Below are positions 30,350 through 32,059 of a stretch of DNA of 52,558 bases, one piece after another. The stretch lies in NCBI GenBank assembly GCA_024227975.1, contig JAAETV010000532.1, positions 1-52,558 on the forward strand, given 5' to 3'. The DNA comes from Actinomycetes bacterium. GTDB taxonomy: Bacteria; Actinomycetota; Acidimicrobiia; Acidimicrobiales; SZUA-35. Made by a program: the position numbers and the translations under genes. Position 1 is the first letter of the stretch. Every line of letters begins with the position of its first letter. The notes beneath the pieces are model-generated. The model did not search any database and had not been told where the DNA came from. It worked only from the letters and a program-made list of their open reading frames with translations.

Positions 30350-32059
30350 TCATGATCGGGCTCGCCGCGCCACGTTCGTCAGCAAGCCGGCGGCCGCCAG
30401 CGTAGTGACCAGGCTCGATCCACCAGCAGAGACAAACGGCAGGGGCTCACCCGTGATCGGCAGCACCCCCAACACCATCCCGATGTTCAAGAAGGCCTGG
30501 ACCAGCAGCCACGACGTGATCCCGGCCGCCAGCAGTGCCCCGAACCGGTCAGGGGCTGACATGGCTGCCCTGAACCCGAACCAGGCGATCAGCAGGAACC
30601 CACCGATGAGGGCACTGGCCCCGATGAGGCCGATTTCCTCGGCCACAATGGCGAAAATGAAGTCAGTATGGGGGAAGGGAAGGAACCCCCACTTGGCTCG
30701 ACCGGCCCCCAACCCGACGCCGAATAGCCCACCAGAGGCAATACCCACCTGGCTTTGGATGGCCTGGAACCCGATCCCTTCGGGATCTCCATTGGGATCG
30801 AGGAAGGCGACGAGACGGGCCCTCATATAGGCGTTGGCGACGGCGACGATAGCGGCGCCCATGATCCCCGGGACCAGCCAGGCCAGGAGGTTCCTGACCC
30901 GAGCGCCGGCCACATACAACACGAGGAACGTCACCGAGCCCATGATGATCGGCGTTCCCAGCTTGGGTTGGAGGAGCATGAGGCCAGACAAGGCAACGAG
31001 GATCAGCATGACTGGCCGCACAGTCAGCTCTGGAACATCCATCCTCCGCTCCCTCCTGGTCAACAGATCAGCAATGAAGATGATGAACACCAGTTTCGTG
31101 ATCTCCGAAGGCTGGATGACTACAGGCCCGATCCCAATCCAACGAGTCGATCCATTGACGTTCAACCCAACCCCAGGAATGAGCAGGGCCACAAGGAGGC
31201 CGAAGGCGAGGAGCAGCAGAGGGGTAGCCAACCGTCGAAGGATCCGATAGTTGATGGCGGTGGCAATGACGAAAGCCACAGCCCCAATGGCTGACCACAT
31301 GGCCTGACGCTTGAACTGGTAGAAGGGTGACTCGGCGTATTCGTGCAAGCTCGACACCGACGAAGCCGACAGCACCATGACCAGACCGAACAGGGTCAAT
31401 CCGAGAACGGTGGCGGTCAAGAATGCGGCATTGCGCTCCCCAGCGTCGGTGACGGGAGCGGATGAGCGCCGCCTCGATCTCGACTTCGCCCGCTTGGCCC
31501 CTTTCGAACCTGACCGACGATTGGCCCGGAATCCAGCCGGCGCCTCGGCCGCCCGACGATTTGTGACCCGCTTGCGGGCCGCAGGTGACTTCCGAGCCGT
31601 TGACTTCTTGGCCGGCGACTTCCGAGCCGTTGACTTGCGAGCCGTCGAAGACTTCCGAGCCGTTGACTTCTTGGCCGGCGACTTCCGAGCCGTTGACTTC
31701 TTGGCCGTTGACTTGCGAGCCGTCGAAGACTTCCGAGCCGTTGACTTCTTGGCCGGCGACTTCCGAGCCGTTGACTTCTTGGCCGTTGACTTCCGCGCCG
31801 TCGAAGACTTCCGAGCCGTTGACTTCTTGGCCGTTGACTTCCGAGCCGTTGACTTCTTGGCCGTTGTTGAGTTCTTGGCCGGCGACTTGCGAGCCGTGGA
31901 CTTGCGAGCCGTTGTTGACTTCTTGGCCGGTGACTTCCGCGCCGTTGTTGACTTCTGAGCCGTTGACTTCTTGGCCGGCGACTTCTTGTGGGCGGTCGAT
32001 GGCTTGCGTGAGGCCTGCTTGGACCGGGTATTGGGTTGGTTGCGAACGGGGGAGGTCAC
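30350..32059 (-). CDS. ftsW: FtsW, SEDS glycosyltransferase, with repetitive basic N-terminal extension
   Basis: 569 residues; typical FtsW is about 380-530. The first membrane helix starts only near residue 212. Residues 24-163 are Lys/Ser/Thr/Ala/Arg/Pro repeats (KKSTARKSPAKK type), with a 26-residue unit repeated exactly twice at 85-136. A further Arg/Lys-rich stretch runs to about 200. The SEDS core is intact, with RWIGIGPVVIQPSE, FPHTDFIFAIVAEEIG and PFVSAGGSSL. FtsW polymerises lipid II with FtsI. GTG 32059 overlaps the murD stop as GTGA, and no start codon lies between the repeats and the core, so the tail is probably translated. Its role is unknown; DNA, RNA or anionic lipid binding are possible. 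Confidence 0.93.
   Translation of the reverse strand: MTSPVRNQPNTRSKQASRKPSTAHKKSPAKKSTAQKSTTARKSPAKKSTTARKSTARKSPAKNSTTAKKSTARKSTAKKSTARKSSTARKSTAKKSTARKSPAKKSTARKSSTARKSTAKKSTARKSPAKKSTARKSSTARKSTARKSPAKKSTARKSPAARKRVTNRRAAEAPAGFRANRRSGSKGAKRAKSRSRRRSSAPVTDAGERNAAFLTATVLGLTLFGLVMVLSASSVSSLHEYAESPFYQFKRQAMWSAIGAVAFVIATAINYRILRRLATPLLLLAFGLLVALLIPGVGLNVNGSTRWIGIGPVVIQPSEITKLVFIIFIADLLTRRERRMDVPELTVRPVMLILVALSGLMLLQPKLGTPIIMGSVTFLVLYVAGARVRNLLAWLVPGIMGAAIVAVANAYMRARLVAFLDPNGDPEGIGFQAIQSQVGIASGGLFGVGLGAGRAKWGFLPFPHTDFIFAIVAEEIGLIGASALIGGFLLIAWFGFRAAMSAPDRFGALLAAGITSWLLVQAFLNIGMVLGVLPITGEPLPFVSAGGSSLVTTLAAAGLLTNVARRARS
31571..31990. repeat. Tandem repeats encoding FtsW basic tail (78-bp unit)
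   Basis: The DNA is built from short near-identical units (minus strand AAGTCAACGGCTCGGAAG and variants). Two copies of a 78-bp higher-order unit lie at 31652-31807, followed by a partial third. Because all units are multiples of three and stop-free in several frames, the region shows long spurious open frames on both strands. Such an array is prone to copy-number change by slippage or recombination. Confidence 0.85.

What the first reader, a model, noticed from the sequence alone, without database searches (positions are those of the whole stretch)
31571..31990. FtsW with a histone-H1-like repetitive N-terminal tail
About 200 residues precede the first helix of FtsW; residues 24-163 are KKSTARKSPAKK-type repeats, with an exact 26-residue (78-bp) unit present twice and a partial third copy. 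The reading frame, the GTGA coupling to murD and the lack of an internal start suggest that it is made. Such tails bind DNA or RNA in histone H1 and in actinobacterial HupB; on the division glycosyltransferase it could link septum synthesis to the nucleoid, anchor on anionic lipid, or be a phosphorylation target. I know of no described FtsW of this kind, but I could not search.
Basis: partly seen in the sequence, partly recalled or inferred. Interest (0 to 1): 0.78.

Follow-up and report, generated by a model that had tools for sequence, protein, structure and literature searches.

The report
Septal enzyme with long positive tail
A bacterial enzyme that builds the wall between dividing cells carries a long, probably unstructured, strongly positively charged tail; close relatives build different versions of the same tail, so it is probably a working part, perhaps a tether to the division ring.

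Summary
The tail is real. The gene at 30350-32059(-) encodes FtsW with 204 residues before the conserved core; the only in-frame start overlaps the murD stop by 4 bases, and the tail has 71 Lys/Arg and 1 Glu. It is not a freak of one assembly: all 16 family members with a trusted start, window included, have a basic tail of 37-293 aa, net +10 to +72, 19-34 charges per 100 residues. The nearest genome found has a different repeat unit but the same composition, MT start and FR motif. Length and repeats are free; charge sign and density are held. Most other class members have a short basic N-tail (median 22.5 aa, n=76); some phylum relatives have long basic C-tails, and two Micrococcaceae long N-tails. 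The H1 resemblance is compositional. I favour an electrostatic tether of the septal synthase, most likely to FtsZ's acidic C-tail, on mycobacterial precedent and acidic FtsZ tails in 89 of 91 genomes; but the FtsW-FtsZ association vanishes in phylogenetic contrasts. Nucleoid, lipid and near-neutral readings stay open. My literature searches showed no described FtsW of this kind.

The parts
30350..32059 (-). ftsW, 569 aa, GTG start, FtsW/RodA/SpoVE family
31448..32059 (-). N-terminal tail, residues 1-204, 71 K/R and 1 E; presumed cytoplasmic and disordered
   Evidence: composition; topology from family knowledge, disorder inferred, no predictor run
31571..31990 (-). residues 24-163, KKSTARKSPAKK-type low-complexity repeats
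31626..31866 (-). 78-bp (26-aa) tandem array, 3.1 copies, 97% matches; exact 89-bp repeats at 31626-31714 and 31704-31792
31514..31546 (-). short motif EAPAGFRANRR, residues 172-182; pattern [AGSP]FR[APST][NKRSQG] in 19 of 82 tails (shuffle mean 0.8, max 5)
   Evidence: also in the nearest genome
32056..32059 (-). 4-base overlap (GTGA) of the murD stop and the ftsW start
30353..31447 (-). conserved SEDS membrane core (residues 205-569)
   Evidence: membrane topology from family knowledge
32056..33429 (-). murD, upstream and overlapping
24669..24851 (-). acidic C-terminal tail of FtsZ (residues 316-376, net -10, ends DEDDLDDEFDVPSFLK): proposed partner
26620..26709 (-). basic 30-aa N-tail of FtsQ (net +10), MTATR start
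22386..23099 (-). sepF, with an acidic stretch at residues 6-69; alternative partner

Best explanation
The tail is a translated, disordered polycationic extension of FtsW's cytoplasmic N-terminus that works as a flexible electrostatic tether. It holds the septal FtsW-FtsI synthase at the Z-ring by multivalent contact with the acidic C-terminal tail of FtsZ, probably with help from anionic lipid. What is selected is charge sign and density plus a minimum length; the exact sequence is free, so tandem duplication keeps rebuilding and lengthening the tail. Shown here: start context, family-wide presence, roughly constant charge density, different repeat arrays in near relatives, and acidic FtsZ tails. 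Inferred: translation itself, disorder, FtsZ as partner, and any effect on division.
For: Start coupling is common in the class (78 of 102 trusted starts at -4). Family tails run from 37 to 293 aa at 19-34 net charges per 100 residues, 16 of 16 positive. Coding-frame charge exceeds base-shuffled DNA. The nearest genome found has a different, 17-aa repeat array of the same character. Of FtsW tails of 50 aa or more, 20 of 20 are positive, also after removing the last 30 residues, so the positive-inside rule near the membrane does not explain them; at 35 aa or more the distal part is positive in 31 of 38 and negative in 1. FtsQ tails of 50 aa or more are positive in 15, zero in 1 and negative in 8 of 24 (my count's rows, L001/L081 counted once; starts not filtered). 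FtsZ tails are net negative in 89 of 91 genomes and FtsW tails net positive in 89 of 91. Raw rho is -0.67 for FtsW tail length and -0.54 for its charge against FtsZ tail charge; against controls, charge gives -0.19 (MurG), -0.18 (MurD), 0.08 (FtsZ GTPase), length 0.23 (FtsZ GTPase). FtsA is not found over the curated cut-off in 19 of 19 genomes tested (17 have weak matches). Precedent: four aspartates at the C-terminus of M. [quoted passage not shown] The FtsQ N-region's Arg/Ala-rich helix binds acidic lipid and FtsZ (PMC10036325, abstract and passages).
Against: The FtsW-FtsZ association disappears in phylogenetic contrasts (r 0.00 and 0.06). Independent pairs, four codings: on average 2.0-3.4 concordant, 0-0.1 discordant, the rest uninformative, of 11; median p 0.25-0.5. 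The window itself has +70 on FtsW but a milder FtsZ tail (-10) than its family (median -16). FtsZ tails are acidic also where FtsW tails are short. FtsQ tails in the window's own family are positive too, so FtsW is not singled out there. The mycobacterial precedent concerns FtsW's C-tail, and FtsQ bound the FtsZ GTPase domain, not its tail. No interaction was tested.
Confidence: 0.4

Rival explanations
1. Nucleoid tether or sensor: the H1-like tail binds DNA (or RNA) and couples septal wall synthesis to the chromosome, as lysine-rich tails do for PhaM and PhaF on storage granules.
For: HC2 profile match to residues 23-195. Similar residue types to HupB PAKK/KAAK tails, which support DNA binding (PMC5676037, passages). 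PhaM PAKKA lysines attach granules to the nucleoid, and PhaF has a disordered histone-like DNA-binding end (PMC9049629, passages). KKA-type tails occur on other proteins in these genomes, including an NYN-ribonuclease protein.
Against: Over the family the tails hold more R than K, and many lack AKKA repeats. In the HC2 search only 2 of 36 listed places in 20 genomes were FtsW; other carriers include FtsQ and an acyltransferase, so the composition is not specific to DNA binders. DNA binding was not tested.
Confidence: 0.2
2. Membrane-surface anchor: the tail lies on anionic lipid at the septum and reinforces topology or localisation, with no protein partner.
For: N-tails are basic in 89 of 91 FtsW proteins. 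M. tuberculosis FtsQ's basic region binds acidic membranes (PMC10036325).
Against: Topology needs only charges near the helix; 20 of 20 tails of 50 aa or more stay positive beyond the last 30 residues. The window's tail has almost no hydrophobic side chains: 1 F, 3 V and no L, I, W or Y in 204 aa.
Confidence: 0.2
3. Near-neutral repeat expansion: a short basic N-tail drifts in length by tandem duplication, which copies its charge; the extra length does little.
For: Length varies from 37 to 293 aa inside the family, and the window's repeats are nearly identical, hence recent. Similar arrays grow on several proteins in these genomes. Most class relatives manage with about 22 aa.
Against: The nearest genome and the window have different arrays at the same density (36 and 34 per 100). 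All 16 trusted family members keep at least 37 aa. The FR motif is found in 13 of 15 tails with core identity of 74% or more (my count).
Confidence: 0.15
4. Phospho-switch: the 66 Ser/Thr residues are Ser/Thr-kinase sites that tune the tail's charge through the cell cycle.
For: 32% Ser+Thr in the tail; kinase modification of HupB appears in PMC5676037's reference list.
Against: Nothing here tests it; I looked for no kinase motif. It would act on top of, not instead of, an electrostatic role.
Confidence: 0.05

Closest known systems
M. tuberculosis FtsW, C-terminal tail binding to FtsZ (Datta 2002, 2006, as cited in PMC3989709 and PMC4285798; originals not seen)
   Same: Same enzyme and phylum; a cytoplasmic FtsW terminus contacts the aspartate-rich FtsZ C-terminus
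   Different: There the C-terminus is used; here the long basic tail is N-terminal. Binding not tested here
M. tuberculosis FtsQ N-terminal region 1-99 (PMC10036325)
   Same: Disordered cytoplasmic N-tail of a divisome membrane protein with a basic segment that binds acidic lipid and FtsZ
   Different: FtsQ not FtsW; mixed charge with an Arg/Ala helix; binds the FtsZ GTPase domain rather than its tail
HupB / TopA lysine-repeat C-tails of Actinobacteria (PMC5676037 passages; PMC7398561 listing and abstract start)
   Same: Low-complexity Lys/Ala-rich repeats
   Different: Soluble DNA-binding proteins with C-terminal tails; FtsW is a membrane enzyme
PhaM / PhaF granule proteins (PMC9049629, passages)
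   Same: A non-chromosomal structure tied to the nucleoid by an H1-like end
   Different: Storage granule rather than septum; DNA binding shown there, not here
Chlamydial HC2 (Pfam PF07382)
   Same: Profile match to residues 23-195, 49.8 bits over a cut-off of 40
   Different: Match probably reflects composition; HC2 is a free nucleoprotein (recalled)

Membership tests
FtsW (SEDS) | FTSW_RODA_SPOVE domain over the core | tested here: met
   E 2.5e-100, residues 215-568
FtsW (SEDS) | FtsW rather than RodA context: murD upstream, murG downstream in the dcw cluster | tested here: met
FtsW (SEDS) | septal glycosyltransferase activity | not testable with these tools
   needs biochemistry
Histone H1-like HC2 (PF07382) | profile score over the curated cut-off | tested here: met
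   49.8 against 40 bits, compositional; 9 of 120 listed FtsW homologs carry PF07382 in the precomputed annotation (my count)
Histone H1-like HC2 (PF07382) | free nucleoid protein binding DNA | not testable with these tools
   here the stretch is fused to a membrane enzyme; DNA binding untested
FtsZ-binding FtsW tail (mycobacterial type) | FtsW C-terminal extension used for binding | tested here: not met
   measured from the window's own C-terminus, family members add 0-16 aa, median 0 (n=16); the window's frame ends 1 residue after the Pfam match (568 of 569)
FtsZ-binding FtsW tail (mycobacterial type) | aspartate cluster at the FtsZ C-terminus | tested here: met
   FtsZ ends DEDDLDDEFDVPSFLK
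FtsZ-binding FtsW tail (mycobacterial type) | charge co-variation of FtsW and FtsZ tails beyond shared ancestry (my own criterion) | tested here: inconclusive
   raw rho -0.67 and -0.54; contrasts r 0.00 and 0.06; pairs 2.0-3.4 to 0-0.1 of 11, median p 0.25-0.5

The most novel reading that the evidence does not exclude
FtsW touches the chromosome directly: the H1-like tail binds nucleoid DNA until segregation clears the midcell, so that the septal synthase itself carries a built-in nucleoid-occlusion sensor whose strength is tuned by repeat number.
Probability: 0.13. Interest if true: 0.85.

Novelty: new variant of a known kind. Interest (0 to 1): 0.5.

Why it matters
If the tail is a tether, these bacteria (no FtsA detected in 19 of 19 relatives tested) would show how the septal synthase can be held to the Z-ring by charge alone, with tether length set by an evolvable repeat array: a natural experiment in which sequence is free and charge density is kept. 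If it binds DNA instead, it would link septum synthesis directly to the chromosome.

Tried and rejected
Chance or frame artefact: rejected by the single in-frame start, murD coupling and the charge test; in 3 of the 18 tails another sense frame is more charged, so frame choice alone is not decisive. Assembly error as the whole cause: rejected because other arrays occur in relatives; copy number itself is unverified. Charge-matched co-evolution of FtsW and FtsZ tails: strong raw correlation, not upheld by phylogenetic contrasts, underpowered in independent pairs, so not claimed. Trade-off of N- and C-terminal FtsW charge within the class: no correlation (rho -0.06, n=102; two rows there, L155 and possibly L138, look like read-through of a missing stop). 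Generic SEDS trait: in the 12 genomes whose second SEDS hit began at profile position 2-11, open frames were 381-446 aa in 11 and 592 in G002 (not examined). That excludes very long tails in the 11 but not tails of some tens of residues; the RodA-type hits starting at position 37 or later were not examined. Structure prediction was not run: I judged a repeat tail of this composition unlikely to give an informative model.

Limits. Of the 120 homologs listed out of 7175, 23 start inside the core and 16 have 0-17 residues before it (counts); I could not read their DNA, so some may truly lack a tail. In one search, 48 of 148 class genomes had no match at E 1e-60 (15 of the 20 listed are 1.1 Mb or less) and were not followed. 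Of the 100 with a match I fetched 98; G002 was already in hand and G116 was split over contigs. Trusted starts are those within -40 to +60 of the murD stop, taking the first ATG or GTG from 60 bases before that stop; 102 of 119 loci pass. L001, L005, L009 and L018 of the family do not; the first three still show basic upstream frames and L018 is cut by the contig end. The 91-genome tests use 91 of the 103 loci with both tails. The phylum sample is the 29 best new matches of 90 genomes, 28 with trusted starts; it leans to close kin, and three (G021, G022, G027) are also in the class sample. That the window is an acidimicrobial genome is inferred from its best hits.

Full report
OBSERVATION. The gene at 30350-32059 (minus strand) encodes a 569-aa FtsW (Pfam FTSW_RODA_SPOVE, residues 215-568, E 2.5e-100) between murD and murG. 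The conserved core starts at residue 205. Upstream, the frame is open back to a TGA five codons before a GTG, and that GTG is the only ATG/GTG/TTG before the core. It overlaps the murD stop by four bases. The 204-residue tail holds 42 K, 29 R, 39 S, 37 A, 27 T, 12 P, one E, no D and one F. A 78-bp array at 31626-31866 has 3.1 copies at 97%, with an exact 89-bp DNA repeat and an exact 43-aa repeat at a 26-aa offset.

IS IT MADE? Among 119 loci read (20 Acidimicrobiia contigs, 98 class stretches, and the window), murD was found upstream in 104. Of 102 trusted starts, 78 lie exactly at -4. The overlap that fixes the window's start is therefore common in the class. Of the 120 listed homologs, 23 are annotated with starts inside the core; these look like gene-caller truncations or fragments, but their DNA was not read. 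Translation itself is not shown.

HOW GENERAL? In the family (core identity of at least 59%, n=16 with trusted starts, window included), every FtsW has a basic N-tail of 37-293 aa, net +10 to +72, 19-34 charges per 100 residues. On a FastTree tree of 91 genomes and 1366 columns, 15 of these 16 (L003 was not in the tree) form one 15-row clade with support 100. In the other 76 class members with both tails and a trusted start, the FtsW tail is mostly short: median 22.5 aa, range 5-125, median net +4. In a phylum sample trusted N-tails are at most 57 aa (28 of 28), while some members carry long basic C-tails: L322 119 aa net +26, L305 94 aa net +19, L311 73 aa net +17. The window's family adds almost nothing at the C-terminus (0-16 aa, median 0). 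Long basic N-tails are not confined to the family. Two Micrococcaceae loci have 89 aa net +10 (L070) and 118 aa net +14 (L075), both with trusted starts; a Ktedonobacter locus (L068, 148 aa net +17) and a clostridial one (L071, 77 aa net +17) have them if their unverified starts are right. In 15 trusted loci from other phyla the N-tail is 0-17 aa (my count, by record title).

DIFFERENT ARRAYS, SAME CHARACTER. The nearest genome found (G018: 81% over the FtsW piece, FtsZ 91%) has a tail with an MTATR start, four copies of a 17-aa unit GSKRAPAKKAAARKGAT (the last altered at its end), a QVSGFRSGR motif, then an Arg-rich segment and the core. Its repeat unit differs from the window's 26-aa unit, but composition and layout are the same. 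The pattern [AGSP]FR[APST][NKRSQG] occurs in 19 of 82 tails of 20 aa or more (shuffle mean 0.8, max 5), and in 13 of the 15 with core identity of 74% or more. Among the 119 loci it is in the window, L001 and L168, so it is a feature mainly of the window's nearest kin. Starts of the form MT[TSA]T are found in 36 of 82 (shuffle mean 1.1, max 6).

WHAT IS HELD IS CHARGE. For 18 tails (17 family loci including L009, whose start is not trusted, plus G018), the coding frame averages 28 net charges per 100 residues. The better of the other two sense frames averages 20, and base-shuffled DNA about 10; mean z 3.5. In 3 of 18 (L004, L010, L015) another sense frame is more charged. Among FtsW tails of 50 aa or more, 20 of 20 are positive, also beyond the last 30 residues; of those of 35 aa or more the distal part is positive in 31 of 38, negative in 1. 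FtsQ tails of 50 aa or more are positive in 15, zero in 1 and negative in 8 of 24 (my count; starts not filtered). In those 8 genomes the FtsW tail is positive (L177's start is not trusted). So divisome tails in the class need not be basic. In the window's own family, however, the FtsQ tails found are all positive.

FTSZ. The window's FtsZ ends in DEDDLDDEFDVPSFLK. Over 91 genomes FtsZ tails are negative in 89 and FtsW tails positive in 89. Raw Spearman against FtsZ tail charge is -0.67 (FtsW tail length) and -0.54 (charge). Controls for FtsW tail charge: -0.19 (MurG), -0.18 (MurD), 0.08 (FtsZ GTPase; 0.23 for length). With phylogenetic contrasts the association is nil (r 0.00, 0.06). Independent pairs under four codings give on average 2.0-3.4 concordant and 0-0.1 discordant of 11, the rest uninformative, median p 0.25-0.5. 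The data are compatible with FtsZ as partner and do not demonstrate it. FtsA was not found over its cut-off in 19 of 19 genomes tested; 17 had weak matches.

H1 RESEMBLANCE. An HC2 search of 20 relatives' genomes gave matches in 18, over cut-off in 6, 36 places listed. I read 30 of these as loci. Carriers include an NYN-ribonuclease protein and an acyltransferase (Pfam), small helical proteins that look phasin-like (recalled), a DksA-like protein (recalled), FtsQ in G012 and G015, and FtsW in G006 and G009. Such tails are a recurrent accessory in these genomes and do not by themselves mean DNA binding.

LITERATURE. Seen: passages of PMC9939409, PMC4285798, PMC3989709, PMC9049629 and PMC5676037; outline, abstract and passages of PMC10036325; listing and abstract start of PMC7398561. 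For a described FtsW of this kind I searched FtsW with N-terminal extension or Acidimicrob (12 papers), with lysine-rich, with N-terminal cytoplasmic (27 papers, 20 listed), with intrinsically disordered, Actinobacteria and tail, and Acidimicrobiia with cell division and FtsZ. Judged by titles and abstract starts, none of those listed describes it. Subscription journals are largely outside this library.

VERDICT. A real, very probably translated, family-wide polycationic N-tail on FtsW, most likely a charge-based tether for the septal synthase, with FtsZ's acidic tail the leading partner. New variant of a known kind (basic cytoplasmic tails on actinobacterial divisome proteins); partner unproven.

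Noticed in passing
16375-17511 (-): A second protein with a long AKKS/AKKP-type tail (repeat array 16966-17090), followed by a C-terminal part that resembles TraR/DksA (recalled; Pfam gives only a sub-threshold HC2 match). Relatives L267, L284 and L285 have a similar tailed protein within about 10 kb of ftsZ.
   Followed up: partly
26620-26709 (-), L093, L083, L096: FtsQ has a basic N-tail ending in a DPRLxARR-type segment before its helix; in some relatives it carries its own AKKA repeats, in other clades it is long and acidic (L163: 323 aa, net -60).
   Followed up: partly
L260, L263, L266, L279: NYN-ribonuclease-like proteins with long C-terminal KKA tails (Pfam Zc3h12a-like NYN checked for L279 only).
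   Followed up: partly
L264, L269, L271, L275, L280, L282, L283, L287: Small helical proteins with C-terminal KKA tails; they look like granule proteins of the PhaM/PhaF kind (recalled resemblance; L269 has no Pfam match beyond HC2).
   Followed up: no
L289: Wax ester synthase/diacylglycerol acyltransferase with a C-terminal KARKATA-type tail, possibly linking lipid bodies to the nucleoid.
   Followed up: no
L223: An FtsW of the class sample with a 219-aa basic (+25) C-terminal extension and a 40-aa N-tail.
   Followed up: no
L070, L075, L068, L071: Long basic FtsW N-tails outside the class: Micrococcaceae (89 and 118 aa), and, with unverified starts, Ktedonobacter (148 aa) and a clostridial genome (77 aa).
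   Followed up: no
22386-23099 (-): SepF with a strongly acidic stretch (residues 6-69), another possible electrostatic partner of basic divisome tails.
   Followed up: no
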